A DNA stretch of 18,062 bases from Azonexus sp. (GTDB lineage: Bacteria > Pseudomonadota > Gammaproteobacteria > Burkholderiales > Rhodocyclaceae): positions 1 to 18,062 of the forward strand of contig JAITWU010000055.1 of NCBI GenBank assembly GCA_031285115.1, written 5' to 3'. Under the pieces are notes generated by a model. That model was given only the letters and a program-made list of their open reading frames with translations, did not search any database and was not told where the DNA came from. Positions 21 to 12,551 of the stretch are shown here, piece after piece (positions within the stretch are counted from its first letter, which is position 1; every line of letters starts with the position of its first letter). The position numbers were made by a program, and so were the translations under genes.

Positions 21-209
21 GGAGGGGTAGGCGAGCGCGAAGTCATGGTTGGCTTATTTACGGGCAAGTTCTCAGCACTGCGTTGAAATGACAGGGAATT
101 TGATGCTCTGGCCCTGGCGGCGAATCCCCTCGTCGGCCATGACAAAACGACATGTTTGCCATCAATTGCCCGTTGCTCACTTTTGCTGTCGTCATAAATA
201 AATATTAAA

Positions 210-222
210 AATCAATATGCTA
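210..222 (+). promoter_or_regulatory. Candidate IHF binding site
   Basis: AATCAATATGCTA matches the IHF consensus WATCAANNNNTTR at every defined base except one (C for the first T of TTR). It is preceded by an AT-rich run at 193-210, a common accompaniment of IHF sites. It lies about 17 bp upstream of the -24 element, between the promoter and any upstream activator site, which is where IHF bends DNA at sigma-54 promoters. Function is inferred from position and consensus only. Confidence 0.45.
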
Positions 223-238
223 TGCGGTTATTTCTGAC

Positions 239-255
239 TTGGCTCCAATTTTGCT
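239..255 (+). promoter_or_regulatory. Sigma-54 (-24/-12) promoter
   Basis: TTGGCTCCAATTTTGCT matches the sigma-54 consensus TTGGCACGNNNNTTGCW at all but two defined positions. GG (241-242) and GC (253-254) are separated by exactly 10 bases, the spacing sigma-54 requires. Transcription would start near 266, leaving a leader of about 74 nt before the first gene at 340. An NtrC-type activator with an intact GAFTGA loop is encoded in the same gene cluster (8509-9846), and a candidate IHF site lies just upstream. Together these make it the likely main promoter of the operon. Confidence 0.7.
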
Positions 256-339
256 AAGAGGCAAAGCGTGGCAAGACGAAAGCTTGTTCTTTCTGATTCT
301 TTCTGCTTGCTGCGCCGACGAGAGGAGAACACATTGTCG

Positions 340-684
340 ATGAAAAAACAGCAGACTGTGCCGCGCCATCGCGCCGGACGGGCGTGGTTGCGGGCTTGCC
401 TGGGTGTATGCGCCCTGGCGGGGGGCGCTGCGCTGGCGATGGAGACGGTGAATTCGCCGCCCGACGTTGCCGCGCCCTACATTGCCGGTGTTGCGCCGGA
501 TCACCGGCGCGCCGACGTGCCGGTCATTACGGCGGCGCCGCCGCTGGATGAAAAACGCGCATTTCACGGCATCAGCCAGCCCTACCCGGCATCGCTTGGC
601 GTCTTCAAGGATCAGGGCGCGTGGTACACCCCGTTCATCCGGCCCGGCATGGCATCGCCCTACGATCTGCGAGGTTTTCATTGA
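340..684 (+). CDS. Small secreted protein of unknown function
   Basis: This ORF encodes 114 residues. The ATG at 340 is chosen because AGAGGAG (321-327) lies 12 nt upstream and a signal peptide follows directly: a basic start (MKKQQ, then RHRAGR), a hydrophobic core (ACLGVCALAGGAALA) and an Ala-x-Ala-like cleavage site near residue 33. A TTG at 334 is an alternative start; the in-frame ATG at 268 would spoil the signal peptide. The mature part of about 80 residues is Pro-rich, has no Cys and no heme motif, and ends with an aromatic segment (GAWYTPF, then SPYDLRGFH). I do not recognise the family. It is the first gene after the sigma-54 promoter, so it probably belongs to the Met-rich/Dms system. 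A periplasmic or outer-envelope accessory role is a guess. Confidence 0.6.
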   Translation: MKKQQTVPRHRAGRAWLRACLGVCALAGGAALAMETVNSPPDVAAPYIAGVAPDHRRADVPVITAAPPLDEKRAFHGISQPYPASLGVFKDQGAWYTPFIRPGMASPYDLRGFH

Positions 685-848
685 TGAAGCCGTATTGCTG
701 CGGCGCGCGCCGACTGGCGAGTTTCTGCGATCAGCGGAAAACGCCGCGCGTCCCGGCTGCCCCGCATCGCACCTGGAAAATGCCGCATGACCGGGCGCTT
801 CCGGGTGATGCACAACCCACTACTCATGAGGAAGGAAACAAACGATGA
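684..848 (+). CDS. Possible 54-codon small ORF bridging two genes
   Basis: The reading frame starts at ATG 684, which overlaps the stop of the upstream gene (TGATG). It ends at TGA 846-848, which overlaps the ATG of the Met-rich protein (ATGA). GAGG at 671-674 is well placed as a ribosome binding site, 9 nt upstream. The product starts MKPYCCGARRLASFC, so it has three Cys in its first 15 residues, then becomes basic and Pro-rich, with no signal peptide or membrane segment. The overlaps at both ends would allow translational coupling from the first gene to the repeat protein. It may equally be chance: the composition resembles a random G+C-rich frame and no homologue is recognised. Confidence 0.3.
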   Translation: MKPYCCGARRLASFCDQRKTPRVPAAPHRTWKMPHDRALPGDAQPTTHEEGNKR

Positions 849-1405
849 AAGCAACCAAAACTGTTATCGCCGGTTTGATGGCCATGTGCCTGGCTGGCGC
901 CGCGGCTGCCGCTGACCAGAAGGGCATGTCGGGCATGTCCGGCATGGAAGGTCAGAAAGGCATGTCCGGCATGTCGGGTATGGAAGGCCAGAAGGGTATG
1001 TCGGGCATGTCCGGCATGGAGGGCCAGAAAGGCATGTCGGGTATGTCCGGCATGGAAGGTCAGAAGGGCATGTCCGGCATGTCGGGCATGGAAGGTCAGA
1101 AAGGCATGTCGGGTATGTCTGGCATGGAAGGCCAAAAAGGTATGTCCGGTCAGAAGGGTATGTCGGGCATGAGCGGCCAGAAGGGCATGTCGGGCCAGAA
1201 GGGCATGTCAGGCATGTCCGGACAGAAAGGCATGTCGGGCATGAGCGGCATGGAAGGCCAGAAGGGTATGTCCGGCATGTCGGGCATGGAAGGCCAGAAA
1301 GGCATGTCGGGAATGTCCGGTATGGAAGGTCAGAAAGGCATGTCCGGTATGTCTGGCATGGAAGGCCAGAAGGGCATGTCCGGTATGAGCGGCGACAAGA
1401 AGTAA
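845..1405 (+). CDS. Secreted methionine-rich tandem-repeat protein
   Basis: The protein has 186 residues. Residues 1-23 form a Sec signal peptide (MKATK, then a hydrophobic core ending AGAAAAA). The rest is almost entirely repeats of QKGMSGMSGMEG: ten full 12-residue units, three 9-residue units lacking MEG and two 6-residue units (QKGMSG), ending in DKK. The mature region of about 162 residues has 38 Met (near 23%), no Cys and no aromatic residues, so it is probably unstructured. The start is supported by GAGGAAGGA at 828-836, 8 nt upstream. Composition recalls the MxKDx-repeat proteins of Burkholderiales and the MrpX peptide of Azospira, a periplasmic hypochlorite scavenger repaired by a methionine sulfoxide reductase. 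Location before a Dms-like S-oxide reductase suggests an oxidant sink or substrate store. Cu(I) or Ag(I) binding by the Met residues is an alternative. Confidence 0.85.
   Translation: MKATKTVIAGLMAMCLAGAAAAADQKGMSGMSGMEGQKGMSGMSGMEGQKGMSGMSGMEGQKGMSGMSGMEGQKGMSGMSGMEGQKGMSGMSGMEGQKGMSGQKGMSGMSGQKGMSGQKGMSGMSGQKGMSGMSGMEGQKGMSGMSGMEGQKGMSGMSGMEGQKGMSGMSGMEGQKGMSGMSGDKK
917..1393 (+). repeat. In-frame tandem repeats of 36 bp with 27- and 18-bp variants
   Basis: The repeat array inside the Met-rich gene has six 36-bp units, then shortened units of 18, 27, 18 and 27 bp, then four 36-bp units and a final 27-bp unit. Every length variant is a multiple of 9 bp, so the frame never shifts. Copies differ mostly at third positions (ggc/ggt, aag/aaa, tcg/tcc/tct and agc for Ser) while the peptide is essentially invariant. 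That suggests selection on the protein rather than very recent DNA duplication. Confidence 0.9.
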
Positions 1406-1416
1406 GTCGCGTCGAC

Positions 1417-1442
1417 AAAGGGGGATTCGTCCCCCTTTTTTT
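1417..1442 (+). terminator. Strong intrinsic terminator-like hairpin with UUCG loop
   Basis: AAAGGGGGA (1417-1425) pairs perfectly with TCCCCCTTT (1430-1438) across a TTCG tetraloop, and a run of seven T (1436-1442) follows. It starts 11 bp after the stop of the Met-rich gene, but only 24 bp separate its end from the cytochrome start at 1467. That leaves little room for a separate promoter. It may therefore act as a partial terminator or 3' stabiliser that makes the upstream genes much more abundant than the enzyme genes. A promoter inside the repeat gene is an alternative. Confidence 0.8.
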
Positions 1443-1466
1443 CAATTCTCGATAAATGGAATTGCC

Positions 1467-2336
1467 ATGCCGCTTCACAAAAAAGTGATTCTGCTGCTCG
1501 GCATCGTCTGCGCGGTTGCCCTGGGCGCTATCCTCAGCCGGGTGAGCGTCGGGGATGGCGTGCTGTCCTCTGCCTCAGCGCGCGCCAAAAACGTGGATTA
1601 CCAGCGCGCCGTCTGGGACCCCCTGCATTTCAAACCGGCCATCGACAACGCCCGCGATGAACAATGCCTCGCCTGTCACCAGGAAGTGCTGGAAAACTCC
1701 GTGCGCCAGACATCAACCGCTGGCGTCGAGGCGGCCAGGTCGCTGGCCTGGTATCAGACGCTCGACACCTATCAGGGCGAGCAGGGCACGTTCCACTGGC
1801 GGCATCTGAAATCGCCCTATGCGACGCAGGTGATGCAGATGAAGTGCAACACCTGCCATCAGGGCGGCAATCCGCGCGACTACGCGGTCAATCCGCCGGA
1901 TGCGAACAATACCGCGCATGTCTTGCGCAAGAACACCAATCCCGAAACCTGCCTGATGTGCCACGGCGCTTACCCGGCTGAGGTGATGGGGCTGCCGCCG
2001 TGGCCCGAGGTTCGGGATTCGCTGCAAAACAACTGCCTTTCCTGCCATGTGGCGATCCGCACGGCGCGGCATCAGGTGAATTTTCTGAAACCCGAGGCCA
2101 TCGAGCAACTGGCTGCGGAAAAAGGCGGCGATGTCTGCTACGGCTGCCACGGCGGGCGGCAGTGGTATCGCATCAGTTATCCCTATCCGCGCCATACGTG
2201 GGAAGGCATGGCGGCGGAAATTCCCGACTGGGCGAAAAATCGCCCGACACAATCGGAAGCCCGCTTTTTGAGCGGCATGGCGAGTCGTACCACTACTAAT
2301 AGCACCACTCACCCCACCAGCGGGAGCAAACCGTGA
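1467..2336 (+). CDS. Pentaheme c-type cytochrome, probably membrane-anchored
   Basis: This 289-residue protein has five CxxCH heme-binding motifs: CLACH (67-71), CNTCH (127-131), CLMCH (162-166), CLSCH (190-194) and CYGCH (224-228). A hydrophobic segment at about 7-26 after a basic start (HKK) exports it and may stay as an anchor; an ARA-type cleavage site near residue 40 is possible. Additional His residues between the motifs could serve as distal heme ligands. Heme spacing does not fit a clear NapC/TorC pattern from memory, so I do not assign it to that family. Its stop overlaps the GTG of the molybdoenzyme gene, and no DmsC-type quinol-oxidising anchor is present, so it probably carries electrons between the quinone pool or another periplasmic carrier and the DmsAB-like enzyme. 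The ribosome binding site is weak (TGGA at 1457-1460). Confidence 0.85.
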   Translation: MPLHKKVILLLGIVCAVALGAILSRVSVGDGVLSSASARAKNVDYQRAVWDPLHFKPAIDNARDEQCLACHQEVLENSVRQTSTAGVEAARSLAWYQTLDTYQGEQGTFHWRHLKSPYATQVMQMKCNTCHQGGNPRDYAVNPPDANNTAHVLRKNTNPETCLMCHGAYPAEVMGLPPWPEVRDSLQNNCLSCHVAIRTARHQVNFLKPEAIEQLAAEKGGDVCYGCHGGRQWYRISYPYPRHTWEGMAAEIPDWAKNRPTQSEARFLSGMASRTTTNSTTHPTSGSKP

Positions 2337-4918
2337 CCCCGAACATTCATCCTTTGATCGACGAAAACGGCATCATCGACTGGCTGAAACGCGCCCCGGA
2401 ACAGGCGGCGCTGATGAGCCGCCGCCATTTTCTCAAGGCGGCGATGGCTGCCTCAGCCCTCGGCGCGACCGGCCTGATGTCGCTGCCGCGTCTGGCCCGC
2501 GCCTTTGCCTACGAGCCGTATCCGCGCGACGACGATTTGCAGACCGTGGTCACCTCCTGCGCCCACAATTGCGGCTCGCGCCACATGCTGGTGGCGCATA
2601 AAAAGGGCGATGTCATCGTCCGGCTCTCGACCGACAACGGCGCTTATCAGGCGGGCGGCCACTTCGGCCTCGACACCGAGGCGCTGCCGCAGTTGCGGGC
2701 CTGTCTGCGCGGGCGTTCCTACCGCTCGCGGCTGTATTCGCAGGAACGCCTCCTCTACCCGATGATCCGCGTCGGCCAGCGCGGCGAAGGCAAGTTCAAG
2801 CGCGCCTCGTGGAATGAGGCGCTCGATCTGGTGGCGGGCAAGATGCTCGATCTCAAACAGAAATACGGCCCCACCGCCATTCTCGATCAGGCTTACGCTG
2901 GCGCGTCTTACGGCGTCCTGCATAAATCCGACCAGATCGAAGGGTTGCTCGCGCGTTTTCTCGGCCTTTTCGGCTGCCGCACCAATTCCTGGTCGGTGCC
3001 GTCTTATCAGGGCACTACCTTCAGTTCGCGCATGACCTTCGGCACCATCGAGGATGGCAATGAAGACGACGCCTTTGCCCACTCGAAGCTGATCATCATG
3101 TGGGGCTGGAACCCGGCCTATACCTTCCACGGCGGCAACACCTTTTACTACATGCGGCTCGCCAAGCAGCGCGGCTGCAAATTTGTTCTGGTCGACCCGC
3201 AATACACCGATTCCGCCGCCGCTTACGACGCCTGGTGGATTCCCATCCGGCCCAATACCGATGCGGCGATGCTGGCCGGGATGGCGCATTACATTTTTGC
3301 CAACAATCTGCACGACCAGACATTCATCGACCGTTTCTGTCAGGGCATGGACTCCGGCACCCTGCCGGAATGGGCGCAGGATAAGGAGAATTTCCGCGAC
3401 TATATTTTCGGCAAATACGACGGCACGCCGAAAACCCCGGAATGGGCGGCGGCAATTTGCGGCGTCAAGGCCGAAGACATCAAAAAGCTCGCCGATCTCT
3501 ACGCCCGCACCAAACCGGCGGCCTTGAAAGCCTCGTGGTCGCCGGGGCGCAATGCCTACGGCGAGCAGTACAACCGCATGGCCGCCGCCGTGCAGGCGAT
3601 GACCGGCAATATCGGCATTCTCGGCGGCTGTTCGGAAGGCGTCGGCAAGGCGTTTCATACCGAATCGGTCGCTTACCCCTACGACGACGATGCCAATCTC
3701 TGGTGGGGGTCGATCAAATCCGACCGCTGGGCGCATTGCGTCCTGAATTACCCCAACTTGAAGCGCGAAGAAATCGGCCTGTGGCCGCGTGATGACGAAC
3801 TCGACGGCCAGATTCCGAATATCCGCGCCATCTGGTGGCACGGCTCCGACTGGTTCAATCAGCTCACCAATATCAATAAAGAAATCGCCGCCGTCAAAAA
3901 GCTCGATTTCATCGTCTGCAACGATTCGACCATCACCCCCTCCGGCATCTGGGCCGACGTGCTGTTCCCGATCGCCACGCATTTCGAGCGGCACGATGTC
4001 GCCCTGCCCTGGTACAAGGGGCATTACTACATCCACCGGCCCAAGGTCATCCAGCCGCTCGGCGAATCAAAAACCGATTTTCAGGTCTTCACCGAACTGG
4101 CTTTCCGCCTGGGCTTTGGCGAAAAATACAACCCCAAGGCGACGCGCGACTATTTCGACAACGACGACGCAGTCGACGAACAATATCTGCGCGAATGGTG
4201 GGAAAACCGCGTCATGGCCAATCAGGGCGTCACGATGGGCTGGGAGGAATTCAAAAAACGCGGCGTCTACAAGTTTGAACTGCCCGAGCCAAAAGTCGCC
4301 TTCCGCGCCCAGATCCAGCATGGCGAGCCGTTCGAGACGCCCTCGGGCAAGATCGAAATCCTGTCGACCACGCTGGCGCAAACCACGGACTGGACCAAAA
4401 CCCAGTACGGCTACGAAATTCCCTACATCCCCAAGTGGATCGAACCGTGGGAATCGCTCAATCACCCCAAGGCCAAGGATTACCCTTTCCACCTCATCAG
4501 CCCGCATCCGCGCTGGCGCACTCACAGCATTTTCCACAACATCCCCTGGCTGCGCGAAACCTACAGTCAGGAAGTGACCATCAACGCCAGCGACGCCGCC
4601 CGGCTCGGCATCATCATGGGCGACACGGTCGAACTGTGGAACGACCGGGGCCGCGTCGTCGTCCCGGCCTACGTGACCGAACGCTGTATGCCGGGCGTGC
4701 TGGTGCTGCACGAAGGCGCGTGGATGGATTTGGACGACAAACAGGTCGACCGCAGCGGCAACCCGGATTTTCTGACCAAGGATGATCCCAGTCCCGCCGG
4801 AGCCTTCGCCTACAACACCGTGCTCTGCAACATCAAGAAAACCGATCTGGCCCACCGCCCCGGCTGGGACCAGCTTGCCACCGCGCGCAGCCACATCTTC
4901 CGCCGTGGCGACCACTAA
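2333..4918 (+). CDS. dmsA: DmsA-family periplasmic molybdopterin oxidoreductase, catalytic subunit
   Basis: The 861-residue protein starts at GTG 2333, overlapping the cytochrome stop by 4 bp, with GGGAG at 2322-2326. A Tat signal is visible (SRRHFLK at 29-35, hydrophobic stretch, LARAFA near 54-59), so the enzyme is folded and cofactor-loaded before export. It follows E. coli DmsA closely from memory: ACLRGRS (123-129), GEGKFKRASW (151-160), WIPIRP, TGNIGILGG and the C-terminal NDRGRVVVPAYVT cofactor-domain segment. Ser224 aligns with the Mo-coordinating Ser of DmsA. The Fe-S site reads CAHNCGSRH (76-84) plus C124, so the third Cys of the DmsA pattern CxxxCxxxC is His84. The family reduces S- and N-oxides or runs related oxo-transfers; the real substrate is not determinable here. 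The symbol is at family level only. Confidence 0.85.
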   Translation: MTPNIHPLIDENGIIDWLKRAPEQAALMSRRHFLKAAMAASALGATGLMSLPRLARAFAYEPYPRDDDLQTVVTSCAHNCGSRHMLVAHKKGDVIVRLSTDNGAYQAGGHFGLDTEALPQLRACLRGRSYRSRLYSQERLLYPMIRVGQRGEGKFKRASWNEALDLVAGKMLDLKQKYGPTAILDQAYAGASYGVLHKSDQIEGLLARFLGLFGCRTNSWSVPSYQGTTFSSRMTFGTIEDGNEDDAFAHSKLIIMWGWNPAYTFHGGNTFYYMRLAKQRGCKFVLVDPQYTDSAAAYDAWWIPIRPNTDAAMLAGMAHYIFANNLHDQTFIDRFCQGMDSGTLPEWAQDKENFRDYIFGKYDGTPKTPEWAAAICGVKAEDIKKLADLYARTKPAALKASWSPGRNAYGEQYNRMAAAVQAMTGNIGILGGCSEGVGKAFHTESVAYPYDDDANLWWGSIKSDRWAHCVLNYPNLKREEIGLWPRDDELDGQIPNIRAIWWHGSDWFNQLTNINKEIAAVKKLDFIVCNDSTITPSGIWADVLFPIATHFERHDVALPWYKGHYYIHRPKVIQPLGESKTDFQVFTELAFRLGFGEKYNPKATRDYFDNDDAVDEQYLREWWENRVMANQGVTMGWEEFKKRGVYKFELPEPKVAFRAQIQHGEPFETPSGKIEILSTTLAQTTDWTKTQYGYEIPYIPKWIEPWESLNHPKAKDYPFHLISPHPRWRTHSIFHNIPWLRETYSQEVTINASDAARLGIIMGDTVELWNDRGRVVVPAYVTERCMPGVLVLHEGAWMDLDDKQVDRSGNPDFLTKDDPSPAGAFAYNTVLCNIKKTDLAHRPGWDQLATARSHIFRRGDH

Positions 4919-4930
4919 GGGGAGACGACC

Positions 4931-5605
4931 ATGAACGACCAGACCCCCGCCAAAGACATCGAACGCATCAAGGAAGCCGTCAAAGCGCGCAAAAAGGAAG
5001 TCTACGTCCCGGTCAAGCCGGAAAAACAGCTTGGCTTCGTGCACCACAACGTCGACTGCATCGGCTGCCGCGCCTGCGAAATCGCCTGCAAGGACAAAAA
5101 CGGCCTGGCCGCCGGGCCGCGTCTGCGCCGCGTCATGTACATCGAAGGCGGCGCTTATCCCGAGGTATTCGCCTACAAGGTCAACGTCTCGTGCAACCAC
5201 TGCGCCGAACCCGCCTGTCTGCCCACCTGCCCGACCGGCGCCATCTGGAAGCGCGTCCAGGACGGCATCGTCGACATCGACAGCACCCTGTGCATCGGCT
5301 GCCGCCGCTGCCAGGCCGCCTGTCCCTACGGCGCGCCGCAGTATGACCCGGCGGAAAATGTCGTCAAAAAATGCAATATGTGCGTCGACGAAATCGAATC
5401 CGGGCGCACCCCGTATTGCGTCCAGGCGTGCATGATGCGCGTCCTCGACATCGGCCCGATCGACCAGTTGCGCGCCGGAAAACACCCGACCAAGGCCGTC
5501 GGCCCGAATGACAAAGTGGTGCGGCAGGTCAAAAACTTCACCAACCCGGAACTGACCAATCCCTCCATCGTCTTCGTCCCGCACAGCCGGGGCCGGATCG
5601 AGTGA
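4931..5605 (+). CDS. dmsB: DmsB-type electron-transfer subunit with four [4Fe-4S] sites
   Basis: This 224-residue protein has sixteen Cys in the four-cluster pattern of DmsB: C43, C46, C49, C53; C88, C91, C96, C100; C121, C124, C127, C131; C148, C151, C163, C167. The segment CIGCRRCQAACPYGAPQY (121-138) closely resembles the DmsB cluster region. There is no signal peptide; subunits of this type are exported bound to the Tat-targeted catalytic subunit. GGGGAGA (4919-4925) precedes the ATG. It lies 12 bp after the catalytic subunit gene and overlaps the chaperone gene by 4 bp. Its role is to pass electrons between the pentaheme cytochrome, or another donor, and the Fe-S/Mo centres of the catalytic subunit. 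Confidence 0.9.
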   Translation: MNDQTPAKDIERIKEAVKARKKEVYVPVKPEKQLGFVHHNVDCIGCRACEIACKDKNGLAAGPRLRRVMYIEGGAYPEVFAYKVNVSCNHCAEPACLPTCPTGAIWKRVQDGIVDIDSTLCIGCRRCQAACPYGAPQYDPAENVVKKCNMCVDEIESGRTPYCVQACMMRVLDIGPIDQLRAGKHPTKAVGPNDKVVRQVKNFTNPELTNPSIVFVPHSRGRIE

Positions 5606-6393
5606 ACCGGATGTCAGCCGACCTCGCCCTTGCAAGCGCCGCCGAAAGCGCCACCGCCAGCGCCCAGTGGCAAACGCTGGTGGCCGAGGATTTATCGCTC
5701 CTCGCCCGTCTGCACGGCCTCGAACTCGATGCCGCAACGCTGGCGGCGTTGCGGGCGGCGCAATTTCCCGATTGCCTCGCCCTGCCGCCCGTCAGCGGCG
5801 AAGGCAAAGAAGCGCGGCAACTGGCGGCAGAGGCCGTCGCCAGCTCTGACCCGGCCTTCGCCCTGCCGCTCGACGACCTTGCCGCCGACTACGCCGCCAT
5901 CTACCTCACGGGCCGCTACCACGCTTCGCCCAATGAATCCGCCTGGCTCGACGAAGACGGGCTGGAACGTCAGGAAGCGATGTTCGCGGTGCGCGAGTGG
6001 TATCGCCGCCACGACCTCGGCGCGGGCGACTGGCGGCGGCGTCAGGACGACAACCTGAGTCTGCAACTGCAATTCATCGCCCATCTTTGCCGCGCCGCCG
6101 AGAACAAAACCGACTGGCGCGCCGTCGCCGATTTTCTCGACAAGCACCCGCTGCGCTGGCTGCGCCGCTTCGCCGAGCGCGTCGCCGGTCGCGCCATGAC
6201 CCCTTTTTACGCCGCGCTCGGGATGCTCACCGCCGACTACCTGAGCGCCCTGCGCGCCGCCCTGATCCGCCTCGCCGACGCCCCCCTGCCGCCGCCGGAG
6301 GACGAAAACGCCCGGCCCGCAAAAGCATCGCCGTGTGCAACCGGCTGCGATGAAGCCGCCCCTTTCGTGCCGGGCGTTGGCCCCACCTGGTAG
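5602..6393 (+). CDS. TorD/DmsD-family molybdoenzyme maturation chaperone
   Basis: This 263-residue, Ala-rich, mainly helical protein carries the characteristic central region of Tat/molybdoenzyme chaperones (LAADYAAIYLTGRYHASPNESAW is the core, at about residues 94-116), followed by an Arg/Trp-rich helix and a hydrophobic second half. Such proteins bind the Tat signal of the molybdoenzyme in the cytoplasm and hold it until the Mo cofactor is inserted. The start is GTG 5602, giving a GTGA overlap with the ferredoxin subunit gene; ATG 5611 is an alternative. The C-terminal tail holds two Cys (CATGC) of unknown meaning. Position directly after the A and B subunit genes supports the assignment; which of TorD, DmsD or NarJ is the closest relative cannot be told here. 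Confidence 0.8.
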   Translation: MNRMSADLALASAAESATASAQWQTLVAEDLSLLARLHGLELDAATLAALRAAQFPDCLALPPVSGEGKEARQLAAEAVASSDPAFALPLDDLAADYAAIYLTGRYHASPNESAWLDEDGLERQEAMFAVREWYRRHDLGAGDWRRRQDDNLSLQLQFIAHLCRAAENKTDWRAVADFLDKHPLRWLRRFAERVAGRAMTPFYAALGMLTADYLSALRAALIRLADAPLPPPEDENARPAKASPCATGCDEAAPFVPGVGPTW

Positions 6394-6439
6394 ATAGCGG
6401 GATTTATCCGGGCCATTGCTCATCGCTGGCAAGCCGGTT

Positions 6440-8512
6440 ATGGTGGCCCAAGCCTTCACTTTCCCTCATGTCATGACCGCCATCGCCAACTCCGGCGCTC
6501 CGCCTTTCGCTACCGCCCCCCCGCGCCGGGCGCGGTATCTGCGGGCGTGGTGGGCGGCCGGCCTGCGGCGCAAGATCATGCTGGCCATGCTGGCGGCGGC
6601 GGCGTTGGCTTCCCTGTTGTTGCTGCTGGCTTTCTTTGCCGTCTATCGCAGCCAGTTGGCGCAGGAGCGCAGCGTCGCCTCGATGCAGGTCAATCGCCTC
6701 CTCGAAGCGGCGCTGAAAAACGCCATGTTGAAGCGCGATGTGCCCGGTTTGCAGGAAATCGTCAGCAGCCTTGGCGAGCAGCAGGGGATTCTCGCGGTGC
6801 GCATTCTCAACCCGGCGGGCGTCATCCGCTTTGCTTCCGACCCCCGCCTGAGCGGCTGCCCCAAGAGCGCCTCGCCTCTTGCCGCCAGTGACGCCTCTCC
6901 CCCGGCCCCTCTCCCGCGAGGGAAGACGGGAGCGCCAGCGAGCGCCGCCGCTTGCGACAAACGGCTGGCCGACGAGCGGATGGCATTGCCGGGCGATCTG
7001 CCAGCCGCTGGCATTGCCCATTTCACGGGCGGCGACGATGGCCGGGAAGTGCTCCGCGCCATCAAGCCGGTGTTCAACGAAAAACCCTGCGCCGTCTGCC
7101 ACGGCTCGCTGGAGCAGCATCCGCTGAACGGCGTGCTGGTGGTCGATTACGATGCCCGAACCCTGCGCGTGCAGGCGCGCGACAGCGCCTTCGGACTGAC
7201 CGCCGGGGCGGCGCTGGTGATGTTGCTGTCGTGCATTGTCGGCTATTGGGCGCTGCGCCGTTATGTGATTGCGCCGGTCGATACCCTGGCTGCCGCCGCC
7301 CGGCGCTTGAGCGAGGGCGATCACGACGCCCGCGTGCCGGTCAGGGATGATGACGAACTGGCCCAGCTTGGCCGGACCTTCAACGACATGGCGAGCAATC
7401 TCGCCGCCAGCGTCAGCCAATTGCAGGCGCAGCAGGATTACCTGCGCCGCCTGCTCGACAGCCTGCCCGACGCGGTGCGCGTGATCAGCCCGGGGTATCG
7501 CGTGCTGGCCGTCAACGAGGCGTACTGCAAATTGCTCGGTTTGAGCCGCGACGCCGCCCTCGATCAGGCGTGTTACCGCAGCAATCACGCCCGTGATGAA
7601 CCCTGCCCGCCCACTCTGGTGACCTGCCCCTTGCACGTCCTCAGCGACGCCCAGCCGGTGCTCAAGTACGAACAGCGCCTGCAACGCGCCGATGGCGGCG
7701 AGGTCGCGGTTGAAACCGTCGCCGCGCGCATCCTGCTGGCCGGGCCGCAGGGCGAACAGGCTTGCGTCGTCGAGTCCCTGCGCGATTTGTCGACGCTCGC
7801 CCGCTATTCGCAGGAACAGCGCCTCTCGGAAATCGGCATGTTGGCCGCTGGCATCGCCCACGAAATCCATAATCCGCTCGGCTCCGTCCGGCTCGCTGTG
7901 CAGAGCCTGACGCGCAGCGCCGACAGCGCGGTGTTGACCAAGGATGACGTGCAGGAGGGCCTCGCTCTGGTCGATGGCGAAATCGACCGCTGCATCGAAG
8001 TCACCCGCCGCCTCTTGCTGCTCTGCCGCCATCCGGACGAAGCCCTGCAATGCGTCGATGTGAACCACGCCATGCACGACGCCGTCATGCTGCTCGGCTA
8101 CGAGGCGCTCGCGGGCGGCATCGAGCAGATCGAGGACTACGCGGCGGAATCGCCGCTGGTGTGCGCCGATCCCGGCGAGTTGCGGATGATGATTTTCAAC
8201 ATGGTGCAGAACGCCCACCACGCCATGCCGCACGGCGGCGAGGTTCGCCTGCGCAGCCGCATCGAGGGCGAGATGGCGCTGATCGAAATTGCCGATAACG
8301 GCGTCGGCATCGCGCCGGAAAACCTCCTCCGCGTTTTTCAACCCTTCTACAGCCAGCGCGCCGACGGCGAGCCGGGAACCGGCCTGGGGCTGTCGATCGT
8401 GCGCTCGACCGTCACCCGCTATGGCGGTCAGATCGAAGTCGATAGCGCGCCGGGGCGCGGCGCCTGTTTTCGCATCCGCCTGCCGAGAGTTGATCCGGGG
8501 AGCGCGACGTGA
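6440..8512 (+). CDS. Membrane histidine kinase with periplasmic CxxCH motif
   Basis: About 690 residues, counted from ATG 6440. No start has a good ribosome binding site; TTG 6416 and ATG 6473 are alternatives. Order: transmembrane helix (about 45-68), periplasmic sensor, second helix (about 252-275), HAMP, PAS (about 332-430), dimerisation domain with IAHEIHNP (His474 phosphoacceptor) and ATPase domain with N-box (FNMVQNA), DNGVGIA and GTGLGLS. The periplasmic domain ends in NEKPCAVCHG (CxxCH at 217-221), a c-type heme attachment motif seen in redox sensor kinases. The PAS domain has a Cys set (CYRSNHARDEPC, then TCPL) of a kind recurrent in anaerobe sensors. It overlaps the response regulator gene by 4 bp, so the two form a pair. 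It probably senses redox state, an oxidant or a substrate in the periplasm. A Pro/Ala-rich stretch between two Cys (140 and 172) looks like an insertion. Confidence 0.85.
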   Translation: MVAQAFTFPHVMTAIANSGAPPFATAPPRRARYLRAWWAAGLRRKIMLAMLAAAALASLLLLLAFFAVYRSQLAQERSVASMQVNRLLEAALKNAMLKRDVPGLQEIVSSLGEQQGILAVRILNPAGVIRFASDPRLSGCPKSASPLAASDASPPAPLPRGKTGAPASAAACDKRLADERMALPGDLPAAGIAHFTGGDDGREVLRAIKPVFNEKPCAVCHGSLEQHPLNGVLVVDYDARTLRVQARDSAFGLTAGAALVMLLSCIVGYWALRRYVIAPVDTLAAAARRLSEGDHDARVPVRDDDELAQLGRTFNDMASNLAASVSQLQAQQDYLRRLLDSLPDAVRVISPGYRVLAVNEAYCKLLGLSRDAALDQACYRSNHARDEPCPPTLVTCPLHVLSDAQPVLKYEQRLQRADGGEVAVETVAARILLAGPQGEQACVVESLRDLSTLARYSQEQRLSEIGMLAAGIAHEIHNPLGSVRLAVQSLTRSADSAVLTKDDVQEGLALVDGEIDRCIEVTRRLLLLCRHPDEALQCVDVNHAMHDAVMLLGYEALAGGIEQIEDYAAESPLVCADPGELRMMIFNMVQNAHHAMPHGGEVRLRSRIEGEMALIEIADNGVGIAPENLLRVFQPFYSQRADGEPGTGLGLSIVRSTVTRYGGQIEVDSAPGRGACFRIRLPRVDPGSAT
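6894..6934. repeat. REP-like sequence inside the kinase sensor domain
   Basis: The C-rich run CCTCTCCCCCGGCCCCTCTC (6894-6913), followed by CCGCGAGGGAAGACGGGAGCG, resembles dispersed intergenic REP-type elements of proteobacteria. TCCCGCGAGGGA forms a small dyad. Here it is translated in frame as a Pro/Ala-rich stretch (SPPAPLPRGKTGAPASAAA) within the periplasmic domain. Assignment rests on recalled similarity to common repeats and on composition, so it is tentative. Confidence 0.35.
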
Positions 8513-9846
8513 AAAAAACCGTCTTGGTCATCGACGACGACCGCGTCTTCAACGCCCTGCTCGTCAAAAACTTTCAACGCATGGGGCTGGAGCCAGTCAG
8601 CGCCGCGTCCTGGCGCGAGGCGGAAAAACTCCTGACCCAGCACGAGCCGGATCTCATCCTGCTCGATTTCCGTCTGCCCGACGCCGACTGCGAACGCCTC
8701 CTGCCGCTGCTCGCGGCGCAATATCCGGTCATCGTGCTGACCGGCTTTGGCACCATCCGCAACGCCGTCAGCATGATTCAACTGGGCGCCAGCGAATACC
8801 TGACCAAGCCGGTCGATCTCGCCGAACTGGAACTGACCGTCAGCCGCGTGCTGGAAACTGCGGCGCTGCGGCAAACGCTGGAGCACTACCGCAAGCGCGT
8901 CAATCAGGATCAGAGCGCGCTGGTCGGCGACAGCAAAGAGATGCGCGACGTGCACAGCCTCATCGACGCCGTCGCCCCGACCGACGTGACCGTGCTCATC
9001 CAGGGCGAAAGCGGCACCGGCAAAGAAATGGCGGCGCGCGCCGTGCACGAACGCAGCCCGCGCGGCGACCGGGCGCTCGTCATCGTCGATAGTTGCGGCT
9101 TGCAGGAACAACTCTTTGAGTCGGAACTGTTCGGCCACGAGCGCGGCGCTTTCACCGGCGCCGACCAGCAGAAAAAGGGCCTGATCGAAGAAGCCGCTGG
9201 CGGCAGCCTGTTCCTTGACGAAATCGGCGAAATCCCGCCAGCCATTCAAGCCAAGCTCCTGCGCGTCATCGAAACCGGCACCTTCCGCCGCCTGGGCGGC
9301 ACCAAGACGCTGCGCGCCGACGTGCGCTTCATCGTCGCCAGCAACCGCGACCTGCTCGGCATGAGCAAAAACGGCAGCTTCCGCAGCGACCTCTACTATC
9401 GGCTGTCGAGTTTCATCATCACCCTGCCGCCCCTGCGCGAGCGGCGCGAAGACATTCCGGCCCTGGCCCGGCATTTTCTCGACAGCTTCCGCAAGACGGA
9501 AGCCAAGGAACTGACGCCGGAAACCTTGAAGCGCCTCTTGGCCTACGACTGGCCGGGCAATGTGCGCGAACTGCGCAACACCGTCGAGCGCGGTTTCATC
9601 CTCTCCCGTGGGGCGCGCAAGATACTGCCCGACCACCTCGCCTTCATCCCCGGCCTCGTCAGCGGCAACAACGACACGACCCTACAGTACGGCTTCGAGC
9701 CGACGCTCGAAGACATCGAACGCGACTATTTCAGCAAACTGCTGGTCAAATACGGCGGCAACCGCCAAAAAGCCGCCGCCGCCCTCGGCATCAGCGAACG
9801 CCACGCCTACCGGCTGATCGTCAAATATCAGTTGTCGGATTTGTGA
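8509..9846 (+). CDS. NtrC-family sigma-54-dependent response regulator
   Basis: The 445-residue protein has a receiver domain (acidic D10/D11, phosphoacceptor Asp53 in LLDF, Thr78, Lys100), an AAA+ domain with Walker A GESGTGK (166-172), the sigma-54 contact loop GAFTGA (213-218), Walker [12 protein letters not shown] (231-241) and RSDLYYRLS, and a C-terminal Fis-type helix-turn-helix ([20 protein letters not shown]). All elements needed for phosphorylation-controlled sigma-54 activation are intact. It starts at GTG 8509, overlapping the kinase stop by 4 bp, with GGGGAG at 8497-8502. A well-formed sigma-54 promoter at 239-255 heads the same gene cluster, so positive control of the operon, and of its own synthesis, is the natural inference. 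Confidence 0.93.
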
Positions 9847-9851
9847 GCTGT

Positions 9852-9868
9852 GAGGTCCGATGGGCCTC
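9852..9868. other. Short hairpin between converging genes
   Basis: GAGGTCC (9852-9858) and GGGCCTC (9862-9868) pair with one G-T wobble across a 3-nt loop, 6 bp after the response regulator stop. A second, widely spaced pair, ATTCCATT (9869-9876) and AATGGAAT (9919-9926), spans the rest of the convergent gap. No T-tract follows the hairpin on either strand, so efficient intrinsic termination is doubtful. Confidence 0.3.
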
Positions 9869-9925
9869 ATTCCATTGCCAGACCAAACGATTACTTTGTC
9901 GACTTCGCTCGATCTGAAAATGGAA

Positions 9926-10474
9926 TCAGTCAGCCGCAGGCGCGCCGGATTCGGGCGGGGCTGTTTTTTTCGCCTCGCTCGCCGGGGCGATGCCGCCGGA
10001 TGGCTTGCTGCCATAGGCCGCCGTTTTCGGGTAACCCGCCAAATCAAGCAGATTGTTGTAGGCGTTGGCCTCAAAACCGCGATAACTCTGCTGGCCAACC
10101 TTGATGCTCGGGACAAAAGCATCGCCAACCAGCGCCTTCAGTTCGTTGGCGTCTTCGGCCTTTTGCAGCATTTTTTCACTGAATGGCACGCCACGGCTGT
10201 TGAGCAGGTCGCGCGCCTGGCGGCACAAATCGGTGCAGTCGGCAGCCGTGTACAGAATCACCGGGAAATTTTCCCGCGCTTTGCGCGTGGCGAACGATTC
10301 GTCGCCGCTTGTCGCTGCTGGCTCACCGCTTGTGCGGCTGATCGCCTTGGCCTTGCCCGGCGGCGGCGTGTCGGAAATGACGACGCGGCCCGAGGAATCG
10401 ATCCAGCGATAGGTTTCGGCGGCAACACCGGCGCTGACGAGGAGCGCAAGGCAGAGGACGGACAATTGACGCAT
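9926..10474 (-). CDS. Periplasmic DUF4124/glutaredoxin-like protein
   Basis: The protein has 182 residues from the ATG at 10474, chosen because GGGAG lies just upstream and the Met is followed at once by a signal peptide (MRQLSVLCLALLVSAGVAA); a longer frame from 10504 would overlap the prlC stop. After the signal comes a DUF4124 segment (ETYRWIDSSGRVVISDTPPPG), then a glutaredoxin/thioredoxin-like domain: VILYTAADCTDLCRQA, RGVPFSEK, the cis-Pro region FVPSIKVGQQ and a C-terminal helix. The active-site Cys pair is spaced CxxxC, not the usual CxxC. The tail is Pro/Ala/Lys-rich and disordered-looking. It lies 19 bp after prlC, in an apparent operon. Periplasmic thiol-disulfide activity is inferred from the fold; the substrate is unknown. 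Confidence 0.8.
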   Translation of the reverse strand: MRQLSVLCLALLVSAGVAAETYRWIDSSGRVVISDTPPPGKAKAISRTSGEPAATSGDESFATRKARENFPVILYTAADCTDLCRQARDLLNSRGVPFSEKMLQKAEDANELKALVGDAFVPSIKVGQQSYRGFEANAYNNLLDLAGYPKTAAYGSKPSGGIAPASEAKKTAPPESGAPAAD

Positions 10475-10493
10475 CGGGATCTCCCTGGATAGG

Positions 10494-12551
10494 CTAGCCG
10501 ACAATCATACCGCTATGGCGCAGCAGCGCGTCTACCGTTGGCTCGCGGCCACGAAAGGCGATGAAGGATTCGAGCGCCGGGCGGGCGCCGCCCATGCTCA
10601 GGATTTCGTCGAGAAAACGCCGCCCAGTAACGGTGTCGAACGGGCCGCCCGCTTCTTCAAAGGCGGCGTAGGCGTCCGCCGAGAGGACTTCGGCCCATTT
10701 GTAGCTGTAGTAACCGGCGGCGTAACCGCCGCCGAAAATGTGCGAGAAACTTTGTGGAAACCGCTGCCAGGCGGGCGGCAGGAGGACGGCGACTTCGGCG
10801 CGGACTTCGTTGAGGAGGTCGAGCACGGTTTTGTCGCCAGCGGGGTCGAAGCCGCCATAAAGCAGCATGTCGAAAAGGGAAAATTCGAGTTGGCGCACGG
10901 TCATCATGCCGCTCTGGAAATTTCTCGCCGCCCGCATTTTGTCGTAGAGCGGGCGCGGCAAGGGTTCGCCGCTGTCGATGTGGGCGGTCATTTCTTGCAG
11001 CACCGGCCATTCCCAGCAGTAGTTTTCCATGAACTGCGAGGGCAGTTCGACGGCGTCCCATTCGACGCCGTGGATGCCGGAAACGCCCAGTTCCTCGCCA
11101 CGGGTGAGCAGGTGGTGCAGGCCGTGGCCGGTTTCGTGAAAGAGGGTGATGACTTCGTCGTGGGTGAAGGTCGCCGGTTTGCCGCCGACCGGGCGGGCGA
11201 AATTGCAGTTCAAGTAGGCGATGGGTTTTTGCCAACCAGCGCCGTCCCGGCGGCGCGACCGCGCTTCATCCATCCAGGCCCCGCCGCGCTTGGTTTCGCG
11301 GGCGTAGAGGTCGAGGTAAAACTGGCCGACCAGTTCGCCGCCCGGCGTTTCAAGGCGGTAGAAACGCGCGTCTTCATGCCAGAGCGGGGCCGTGTCCGGC
11401 TTGACGCGGACGCCGAACAGGCTTTCGATGACCTTGAACAGGCCACCGATGACCTTCGTCTCGGTGAAATATTGTTTGACCTCCTGCTCGGAAAAGGCGT
11501 AGCGCGCCTGCAACAGCTTTTCGGAAGCGTAGGCCGCATCCCACGGCTGAAAATCGGCGATGCCCAGCGTTTCTTTGGCAAACGCCTTGAGTTCGGCGAT
11601 GTCTTTTTCGGCAAAGGGTTTGGCCTTGCCAGCCATGTCGCGGAGAAAAGCCAGCACCTGTTCCGGCGTGTCGGCCATTTTGGTTTGCAGCGAGAGTTGG
11701 GCGAAATTGGCAAAGCCGAGCATCCGCGCCTCTTCGCCGCGCAATTCGAGCAGCCGGGTGATGATCGGCGTGTTGTCCCATTCCGGCTTGCTGGCGCCAT
11801 CGGTCAATTCGGCGGCGCGGGTGGCGTAGGCGCGGTAGAGGCGCTGGCGCAGCTCGCGGTTGTCGGCGTACTGCATGACCGGGCCGTAAGAGGGCGCGTG
11901 CAGGGTGAATTTCCAGCCGTCGCTCTCTATTTTTTGCGCCGCTTCGCGGGCGGCGGCGATGGCGTCAGCGGGCAGCCCGGCAAGCAGGCGCTCGTCGGTG
12001 ATGATTTCGGCAAAGGCATTGGTCGCATCGAGCAGGTTTTCCGAAAATTTGGCGGCAAGCTGCGACAGTTCTTCCATGATCGCCTGATAGCGCGGCTTTT
12101 GTTCTTCCGGCAGTTCGGCCCCGGCAAGGCGGAAGTCGCGGATTTCGTTGGCGACGATCTGTTTCTGCTCGACGGATAACGTGGCGTATTCCGGGCTGGC
12201 TTTGAGGGCGCGATATTGGTCGAACAGTTTGAGGTTCTGCCCCAATTCGGCGTAAAAGCGCGAGACTTCCGGCAGCATTTCGTTATACGCCGCCCGCCAG
12301 TCGGGCACGTCATTGACCGAATGCAGATGGCCGACCACGCCCCAGGCGCGGCCAAGCGGCTCCAGCCCCAGCGCCAGCGCTCCGGCAAAATCCCGCCAGG
12401 TGGCGGGCGTGGCGTCGCTGGCAAGGCGCTCGATCAAGGCGCGGCCATCGGCCAACAGTTGCGTGATGGCCGGTTTGACGTGAGCCGGTTGAATGAGGTC
12501 GAAACGGGGAAGGTCGGTGAAGTCGAGGAGGGGGTTTGGCGGGGTGGTCAT
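10494..12551 (-). CDS. prlC: Oligopeptidase A (M3 family zinc metallopeptidase)
   Basis: The protein has 685 residues from the ATG at 12551, close to the E. coli enzyme (about 680). The zinc-binding motif HETGH in LFHETGHGLHHLL is intact, with downstream family signatures (GVEWDAVELPSQFMENY, and GGGYAAGYYSYKWAEVLSAD near the C terminus). It is a cytoplasmic enzyme that degrades short peptides, including cleaved signal peptides. The frame continues upstream to 12647 through the dispersed inverted repeat; I start at MTTPPNPLLDF because family members begin there, although no good ribosome binding site precedes it. The DUF4124/glutaredoxin gene follows 19 bp downstream on the same strand. Confidence 0.93.
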   Translation of the reverse strand: MTTPPNPLLDFTDLPRFDLIQPAHVKPAITQLLADGRALIERLASDATPATWRDFAGALALGLEPLGRAWGVVGHLHSVNDVPDWRAAYNEMLPEVSRFYAELGQNLKLFDQYRALKASPEYATLSVEQKQIVANEIRDFRLAGAELPEEQKPRYQAIMEELSQLAAKFSENLLDATNAFAEIITDERLLAGLPADAIAAAREAAQKIESDGWKFTLHAPSYGPVMQYADNRELRQRLYRAYATRAAELTDGASKPEWDNTPIITRLLELRGEEARMLGFANFAQLSLQTKMADTPEQVLAFLRDMAGKAKPFAEKDIAELKAFAKETLGIADFQPWDAAYASEKLLQARYAFSEQEVKQYFTETKVIGGLFKVIESLFGVRVKPDTAPLWHEDARFYRLETPGGELVGQFYLDLYARETKRGGAWMDEARSRRRDGAGWQKPIAYLNCNFARPVGGKPATFTHDEVITLFHETGHGLHHLLTRGEELGVSGIHGVEWDAVELPSQFMENYCWEWPVLQEMTAHIDSGEPLPRPLYDKMRAARNFQSGMMTVRQLEFSLFDMLLYGGFDPAGDKTVLDLLNEVRAEVAVLLPPAWQRFPQSFSHIFGGGYAAGYYSYKWAEVLSADAYAAFEEAGGPFDTVTGRRFLDEILSMGGARPALESFIAFRGREPTVDALLRHSGMIVG

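What the first reader, a model, noticed from the sequence alone, without database searches (positions are those of the whole stretch)
845..6393. Met-rich secreted repeat protein coupled to a Dms-type S-oxide reductase: a candidate oxidant sink and repair system
A signal-peptide protein with about 23% Met, no Cys and no aromatics sits directly upstream of a Tat-exported DmsA-family enzyme, DmsB, chaperone and pentaheme cytochrome, with a two-component system behind. In Azospira, periplasmic MrpX (Met-rich) scavenges hypochlorite and is repaired by the YedY1 Mo-enzyme; in Haemophilus, DmsABC has been linked to S-oxide reduction under hypochlorite stress. Here both ideas may be joined: a polymeric Met sink recycled by respiration-linked MetSO reduction. 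The physical linkage is seen; the function is inferred. Cu(I)/Ag(I) binding or simple DMSO respiration are alternatives.
Basis: partly seen in the sequence, partly recalled or inferred. Interest (0 to 1): 0.85.

Follow-up and report, generated by a model that had tools for sequence, protein, structure and literature searches.

The report
Methionine-polymer operon with DMSO-reductase-like enzyme
Many environmental bacteria carry, next to one particular molybdenum enzyme, a gene for a secreted protein that is about a quarter methionine, and the pair looks like a way of soaking up oxidants outside the cell and repairing the sponge with respiratory electrons, though this has not been tested.

Summary
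The window encodes, in one direction: a small secreted orphan protein, a (Gly-Met-x)n protein (mature form 23% Met, no Cys, Gly at 53 of 53 third positions), a pentaheme cytochrome, DmsA-, DmsB- and TorD-like proteins, a histidine kinase with a heme-c motif, and a sigma54 regulator. The set recurs in Beta-, Gamma- and Alphaproteobacteria. In the genus, QKGMSGM arrays occur in 16 of 19 dmsA-positive and 0 of 41 dmsA-negative genomes. In a separately drawn class sample, 8 of 11 orthologous loci have an array and 0 of 29 other molybdoenzyme loci do. Among loci with full flanks, kinase and regulator are nearby in 25 of 28 with the array and 0 of 9 without. The enzyme is a distinct clade: Ser ligand kept, one FS0-cluster Cys replaced by His in 95 of 95, no DmsC. 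It is not MrpX/YedY (other repeat, enzyme, regulation), but the nearest working model is the same: an oxidisable Met polymer repaired by a respiratory Mo enzyme. Function is inferred; small-molecule respiration with a Met shield, a scaffold, or Cu(I) binding remain open. New variant of a known kind; interest 0.72.

The parts
240..255 (+). sigma54 (-24/-12)-like promoter, TGGCTCCAATTTTGCT, ending 84 nt before the start codon at 340
   Evidence: 13.4 bits with recalled weights; upstream of the small gene in relatives, 16 of 40 regions (window included) score at least 14 bits on the gene strand and 0 of 40 on the other strand; several rows are close relatives
340..684 (+). small secreted protein, orphan family (IAGLxPxxRPxxAPVI ... 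QGAWYTPFxxPGMxGPYDIRGWH)
   Evidence: alignment A1 of 39; no Pfam or NCBIfam match; 31 database proteins including the window's own, those with a name all called hypothetical; tblastn hit in 40 of 42 Met-rich loci with at least 2.5 kb upstream
845..1405 (+). secreted (Gly-Met-x)n Met-rich repeat protein
   Evidence: Pfam Collagen 96.6 bits (cut-off 27.2), which I put down to the Gly register
1417..1438 (+). terminator-like hairpin AAAGGGGGATTCGTCCCCCTTT with T tail, between the Met-rich gene and the cytochrome gene
   Evidence: 22 such sites on both strands of 150-9900 against 10.0 in shuffles, so single sites prove little; a site of this kind directly after the Met-rich gene in 20 of 70 loci, against 2 of 70 after the cytochrome gene, 1 of 70 after dmsA and 2 of 70 on the reverse strand; some rows are near-copies
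1467..2336 (+). pentaheme c-type cytochrome with N-terminal hydrophobic segment (anchor or signal)
   Evidence: five CxxCH; alignment A2 of 50; no convincing PDB relative by sequence (best E 0.92) and none by fold of a middling model
2333..4918 (+). DmsA-like Mo-bisMGD catalytic subunit with Tat-like motif (SRRHFLK)
   Evidence: TIGR02166 617 bits against cut-off 777.7; TAT_signal 21.1 against 22.7; Ser224 aligns with the DorA Ser taken as Mo ligand (ligand role recalled) and with Ser205 of E. coli DmsA; His84 stands at Cys71 of E. coli DmsA, 95 of 95
4931..5605 (+). DmsB-like iron-sulfur subunit
   Evidence: TIGR02951 194.9 bits against cut-off 214.1
5602..6393 (+). TorD/DmsD/NarJ-family maturation chaperone
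   Evidence: PF02613, 66.3 bits
6416..8512 (+). sensor histidine kinase with a CxxCH heme-c motif (CAVCH) in its N-terminal sensor part, HAMP and PAS
   Evidence: CxxCH present in 37 of 37 relatives whose sensor part is covered
8509..9846 (+). sigma54-dependent response regulator (receiver, AAA+, Fis-type HTH)
   Evidence: PF00158 211.5 bits, PF00072 68.1 bits

Best explanation
This is a regulated envelope oxidant-buffer. The (GMx)n protein is exported as a water-exposed polymer of thioethers, made in excess of the enzyme, and is oxidised to methionine sulfoxide in place of other envelope proteins. Quinol electrons pass through the pentaheme cytochrome and DmsB to the Ser-ligated Mo centre of DmsA, which reduces the sulfoxides back, so the sink is catalytic and linked to respiration. 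A heme-c histidine kinase senses the redox or gas state of the envelope and switches on a sigma54 promoter ahead of the small gene and the Met-rich gene through the paired regulator. Shown here: gene set, conserved linkage, absence of the regulators where the array is absent, ligand pattern, promoter and terminator signatures. Inferred: export, oxidation of the Met residues, the enzyme's substrate, the direction of electron flow, heme binding and signal of the kinase, and the excess of the Met protein.
For: Linkage: of 95 DmsA rows in the tree (88 different), 70 have the array, 12 lack it and 13 are cut off too early; no array anywhere in the stretches held except upstream on the gene strand. 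Genus: 16 of 19 against 0 of 41, p 6e-12, all 16 with an array 0.9-1.7 kb upstream of dmsA. Class sample: 8 of 11 orthologous loci against 0 of 29 other molybdoenzyme loci, 24 of which have at least 2.5 kb upstream. Kinase and regulator nearby in 25 of 28 against 0 of 9. These p-values ignore relatedness. In GMx runs x is mostly Ser or Gly, counted over all loci. The Ser that aligns with the Mo ligand is conserved 95 of 95. Precedent: DorA reduces MetO in proteins and, of two peptides tested, works better on QWGAGM(O)QAEED (PMC7402097). The window's genome and three close relatives with the cluster (79, 93 and 97% complete) show no MsrP match. GMx-like proteins found by search carry c-type cytochrome domains in 23 of 86 cases, several of them near-copies.
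Against: No biochemical datum. DmsA orthologues persist without the array in 12 loci, so the enzyme has a use without it. Where DorA has SYGW, the motif PMC7402097 calls necessary for sulfoxides, this enzyme reads AYAG, though E. coli DmsA does not keep SYGW in the alignment either. MsrP over cut-off occurs in 13 of 19 dmsA-positive genus genomes and 12 of 41 negative ones, so many carriers already have a periplasmic MetO reductase. GMx stretches also occur in unrelated exported proteins, so they may have a general, non-redox use.
Confidence: 0.45

Rival explanations
1. The enzyme respires a small molecule (DMSO, another S- or N-oxide, or an oxyanion) and the Met polymer is only a passive shield against reactive by-products or outside oxidants, repaired by other means.
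For: The enzyme's best family model is DMSO/selenate reductase; 12 orthologous loci lack the polymer; in perchlorate reducers a Met-rich peptide guards against by-product hypochlorite (PMC4623255, passages); MsrP is present in 13 of 19 carriers in the genus.
Against: The polymer is tied to this one enzyme clade and to none of 29 other molybdoenzyme loci; the window's own genome and its nearest carriers show no MsrP.
Confidence: 0.27
2. The polymer is a scaffold or docking strand: a Gly-x-y chain that gathers the cytochrome, DmsAB and perhaps the small protein, with Met chosen for sticky, flexible contacts with heme proteins.
For: Strict Gly register (53 of 53); c-type cytochrome domains in 23 of 86 GMx-like proteins found; conserved small orphan protein in the set.
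Against: Length varies widely between loci (core 50 to 363 aa, some cut by contig ends). Whether Met can be swapped for another hydrophobic residue was not tested, because arrays were found by their Met.
Confidence: 0.15
3. The polymer binds Cu(I) or Ag(I) through its MxxM spacing and serves metal handling in the envelope.
For: M-x-x-M-x-x-M spacing is like thioether copper sites (recalled).
Against: None of the recurrent neighbour families that I looked at (four by Pfam, the rest by eye) is a known copper protein, but no systematic search was made; His is absent from 59 and Cys from 58 of 72 array cores; linkage is to a molybdoenzyme and a heme-motif kinase.
Confidence: 0.08

Closest known systems
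MrpX with YedYZ (Azospira suillum) and BcrX with BcrQP (Brucella melitensis)
   Same: Met-rich peptide gene in one operon with a periplasmic MsrP-type MetO reductase system, which in E. coli draws on the quinone pool (PMC4623255 and PMC8315932, passages; the 2015 mBio paper itself was not held).
   Different: There the repeat is MXKDX (said of BcrX, homologous to MrpX), the enzyme MsrP with MsrQ, and the regulator an ECF sigma/anti-sigma pair. Here the repeat is GMx, the enzyme DmsAB with a pentaheme cytochrome, and the neighbouring regulator a heme-motif kinase with a sigma54 activator.
E. coli DmsABC and the YnfE/DmsA subfamily (TIGR02166)
   Same: 37.4% identity over 791 aligned positions, Ser at the ligand place, Tat-like motif, DmsB-like partner.
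   Different: Below the family cut-off; His at Cys71, one of four Cys taken as FS0 ligands (recalled); no DmsC; pentaheme cytochrome, Met-rich and small orphan genes instead.
Rhodobacter sphaeroides DorA
   Same: Ser-ligated DMSO reductase fed through a multiheme cytochrome (recalled); reduces MetO in proteins (PMC7402097).
   Different: DorA has no DmsB and, as far as I recall, no linked Met-rich gene; SYGW motif not kept here.
Haemophilus influenzae MtsZ-MtsY
   Same: Periplasmic Mo MetO reductase with a membrane cytochrome partner (PMC8340005 passages).
   Different: MtsZ is described as acting on free MetO; our cytochrome scores below the NapC/NirT cut-off (18.2 against 24.1).

Membership tests
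MrpX/BcrX-type Met-rich peptide system | MXKDX pentapeptide repeat | tested here: not met
   the three NCBIfam matches are collagen-like adhesins below cut-off, no MXKDX family at E up to 0.1; repeat is QKGMSGMSGMEG
MrpX/BcrX-type Met-rich peptide system | operon with MsrP/MsrQ (YedYZ) | tested here: not met
   no MsrP (NF003767) match in the held genome, 83% complete; neighbours are DmsAB-like and pentaheme cytochrome
MrpX/BcrX-type Met-rich peptide system | sacrificial Met oxidation and repair | not testable with these tools
   needs biochemistry
DmsABC (DMSO/selenate reductase, TIGR02166) | curated score cut-off | tested here: not met
   617.3 bits against 777.7; 0 of 185 class genomes have a match over it
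DmsABC (DMSO/selenate reductase, TIGR02166) | Ser ligand to Mo | tested here: met
   Ser224 by alignment, 95 of 95 rows
DmsABC (DMSO/selenate reductase, TIGR02166) | four-Cys FS0 cluster site (role recalled) | tested here: not met
   three of four Cys kept; Cys71 of E. coli aligns with His84, 95 of 95
DmsABC (DMSO/selenate reductase, TIGR02166) | DmsC membrane anchor | tested here: not met
   no PF04976 in the held genome; E. coli control rings
Collagen-like proteins (PF01391) | Gly at every third position | tested here: met
   53 of 53; 96.6 bits
Collagen-like proteins (PF01391) | triple helix, usually Pro-rich | tested here: inconclusive
   no Pro in the mature protein; helix itself not testable here
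NapC/NirT-TorC quinol dehydrogenases | PF03264 domain | tested here: not met
   18.2 bits against cut-off 24.1

The most novel reading that the evidence does not exclude
The (GMx)n protein is not just protected but is itself the dedicated respiratory substrate: a rechargeable redox capacitor outside the membrane. Oxidants or oxic periods charge it as poly-methionine-sulfoxide (38 Met in the mature protein, two electrons each), and in anoxia the DmsAB-pentaheme branch discharges it as a terminal electron acceptor, with the heme-c kinase matching synthesis to redox state. That would be a proteinaceous, genetically encoded electron-acceptor store.
Probability: 0.07. Interest if true: 0.95.

Novelty: new variant of a known kind. 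Interest (0 to 1): 0.72.

Why it matters
If right, the Met-sink-plus-Mo-reductase idea has arisen a second time with different parts (GMx polymer, DmsAB-type enzyme, heme-motif kinase) and is spread over three proteobacterial classes, including Dechloromonas and Thiodiazotropha symbionts. It would give a natural protein substrate to a DMSO-reductase-family enzyme, name a function for an enzyme clade that annotation would probably call DMSO reductase, and give a simple test system for methionine as an antioxidant. It also warns against counting these genes as DMSO respiration in metagenomes. In the listings of eight literature searches I saw no paper that describes the gene set; that library misses most subscription journals.

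Tried and rejected
Fold search of the small orphan protein was not run: its model is low in confidence (pLDDT 70, pTM 0.29, little secondary structure). The cytochrome model (pLDDT 68, pTM 0.55) gave no PDB match. The first repeat pattern (four M in MxG register) hit 52 of 60 genomes; I think it is confounded by the Gly-Met tail of GroEL (recalled, not checked), and it was replaced by QKGMSGM. Collagen adhesin: the matches rest, in my reading, on the Gly register; rejected as a family assignment. Canonical DMSO reductase: rejected on cut-off, His ligand and absent DmsC. A chance ORF: rejected because the array gene recurs in three classes. GMx stretches elsewhere in the 12 array-less genomes: 5 of 12 have a GMSGMSG hit, seven hits in all; by eye three are short lipoproteins, one is on an ammonium-transporter-like protein, two on binding-protein-like lipoproteins and one on an efflux-type protein.
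Full report
WHAT IS THERE. The window is a whole contig (G000:C388) of a 2.6-Mb, 83% complete draft genome. From 240 to 9846 the genes of interest read rightward: a sigma54-like promoter, a small secreted gene, the Met-rich gene, a terminator-like hairpin, the pentaheme cytochrome, dmsA-, dmsB- and torD-like genes, a histidine kinase and a sigma54 response regulator. The Met-rich protein has a signal peptide of about 22 residues (by eye; no predictor was run) and a mature part of 164 residues: 38 Met, no Cys, no aromatic, no Pro, Gly at 53 of 53 third positions. I put the Pfam Collagen match down to the strict Gly-x-y register. Ten units are identical in protein but differ by 4.2 bases per 36 on average; the units were picked for identical protein sequence, so only the DNA spread is informative.

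IS THE LINKAGE REAL. A scan of the genome collection (one genome for each of 84,980 species) with DmsA gave 293 relatives, of which the best 80 were kept; 18 more loci came from the genus search, several of them apparently the same genomes again. The set small / Met-rich / cytochrome / dmsA / dmsB / dmsD recurs, not always complete, at 76-92% identity of DmsA in records titled Beta-, Gamma- and Alphaproteobacteria. Counting ORFs with at least 18 residues in GMx runs, 69 of 99 loci (window included) have one on the gene strand upstream of dmsA and none has one elsewhere in the stretch held. L008, L009, L087 and L088 have looser arrays seen by eye. For the tree four rows were dropped: L056 (no upstream sequence), L087 and L089 (copies of L008 and L007) and L088, which I wrongly took for a copy and which has an array. 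That leaves 95 rows, 88 different: 70 yes, 12 no (at least 2.5 kb upstream and no array) and 13 too short. The 12 are nine rows of one betaproteobacterial group of ten, plus three scattered rows. Shuffled labels need 11.4 changes on average, the data 5; near-copies make this a weak test.

CONTROLS. In 60 genomes of the genus, dmsA orthologues occur in 19 and the QKGMSGM pattern in 16, all among the 19, with 0 hits for the reversed pattern. In each of the 16 an array lies 0.9-1.7 kb upstream of dmsA; G005 has a further piece at the end of another contig. Of the other three, G009 is cut by the contig end, and G011 and G015 show no hit with this pattern and no array in the 1.4 kb held upstream. 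In 300 genomes of the order, dmsA occurs in 8 and GMSGMSGM in 9; 6 overlap, in 4 of which the array is near dmsA and in 2 on another contig. Two dmsA-positive genomes are missed by this pattern, one of which (G047) has QKGMSGM. Three of 292 dmsA-negative genomes also hit, two of them with Thr in place of Ser. In a class sample, 185 genomes were searched with the DmsA family; of 41 matches, all but the window's were fetched. The sample was drawn separately, but its species may overlap with those. Eleven are orthologues (69-78% identity) and 8 of them have the array; the other three are a contig end (L163), a locus with 2.2 kb upstream and no array (L156) and a second copy without detected partner genes (L159). 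The 29 others (23-31% identity) have none; 24 of these have at least 2.5 kb upstream, five are cut shorter. All p-values given ignore relatedness.

REGULATION. Among 37 loci with at least 8 kb on both sides, 25 of 28 with the array also hold the kinase and regulator and 0 of 9 without it do (p 2e-6; the nine are not all independent, and the rest of those genomes was not searched for the pair). CxxCH is present in 37 of 37 kinase relatives whose sensor is covered. Upstream of the small gene, 16 of 40 regions score 14 bits or more for a -24/-12 site and 0 of 40 on the other strand; 22 of 40 reach 12 bits, none of them among the 7 array-less loci in the set. The weights were recalled, not fitted, and many rows are close relatives. 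Eleven loci with the array do not reach 12 bits there; in some of these the Met-rich gene precedes the small gene, and of 30 regions upstream of the Met-rich gene 8 reach 14 bits (0 on the other strand), several being the same sites. A terminator-like site follows the Met-rich gene in 20 of 70 loci, against 2, 1 and 2 of 70 at three control places. From this I infer, weakly, that the Met protein is made in excess.

THE ENZYME. It is 37.4% identical to E. coli DmsA and falls below the TIGR02166 cut-off. Ser stands at the place of the Mo ligand, the third FS0 Cys is His in 95 of 95, and DmsC is absent from the held genome; the ligand roles are recalled. The cytochrome has no convincing solved relative by sequence or fold. 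Its N-terminal stretch looks uncleaved in the window but cleavable in gammaproteobacterial forms (by eye), so direct quinol oxidation is not shown. A strong NapC/NirT-family match lies elsewhere in the genome.

HOW IT MOST LIKELY WORKS. I favour a repairable Met sink. [quoted passage not shown]). Known: a Met-rich peptide in operon with MsrPQ contributes to HOCl resistance in Brucella, with a like system in Azospira (PMC8315932 and PMC4623255, passages). New here: a conserved pairing with different parts. Against: the SYGW motif of DorA is not kept; 12 loci do without the polymer; MsrP over cut-off is present in 13 of 19 carriers of the genus and 12 of 41 non-carriers (p 0.006), so MsrP is if anything more common in carriers, although six carriers, among them the window's own genome, G004, G041 and G049, have none.

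WHAT REMAINS UNKNOWN. The oxidant, the substrate, the kinase signal, the role of the small protein and of the extra genes in some relatives (a polyferredoxin family in 36 of 81 loci, a thioredoxin-NHL family in 19, a cytochrome c family in 15; clustering, Pfam for one member each). In the protein search with the Met-rich protein, 23 of 86 hits carry c-type cytochrome domains, several being near-copies; only the 8000 candidates sharing most words were scored. This keeps a scaffold role open.

Noticed in passing
L007 (WQUQ01000246.1): A record titled Desulfobulbus sp. carries the whole cluster at 91% DmsA identity to the window; the contig is probably a betaproteobacterial one in the wrong bin.
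   Followed up: no
P0012, P0079: NapC/NirT-type cytochromes with a C-terminal GMSGMQGM-type Met-rich tail; 21 further hits of the same search join GMx stretches to PF00034/PF13442 cytochromes c, several being near-copies.
   Followed up: partly
L146, L147, L149: Short Met-rich GMx lipoproteins (by eye) encoded away from dmsA in genomes whose dms locus lacks the array.
   Followed up: partly
L026:14474-15550, L026:15688-17280: In part of the loci a polyferredoxin (36 of 81) and a thioredoxin-NHL lipoprotein-like gene (19 of 81) stand near the dms genes, mostly downstream of the chaperone gene.
   Followed up: partly
L026 Met-rich protein and P0025, P0036, P0039, P0040, P0045, P0074: GMx arrays are interrupted or flanked by a short aromatic motif such as GYFKITPQGQIFFYP; it might be a small beta-hairpin module.
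   Followed up: no
L047 (relative -545 to -90 from dmsA): A second Met-rich protein, lipoprotein-like, sits between the cytochrome and dmsA in this alphaproteobacterial locus.
   Followed up: no
L159 and L160 (G400): One genome has two dmsA orthologues: one with the set and one copy with no partner gene detected in the 8 kb held.
   Followed up: no
window 9929-10504 (-): Next to the regulator, on the other strand, a DUF4124 protein with a glutaredoxin domain, apparently exported.
   Followed up: no
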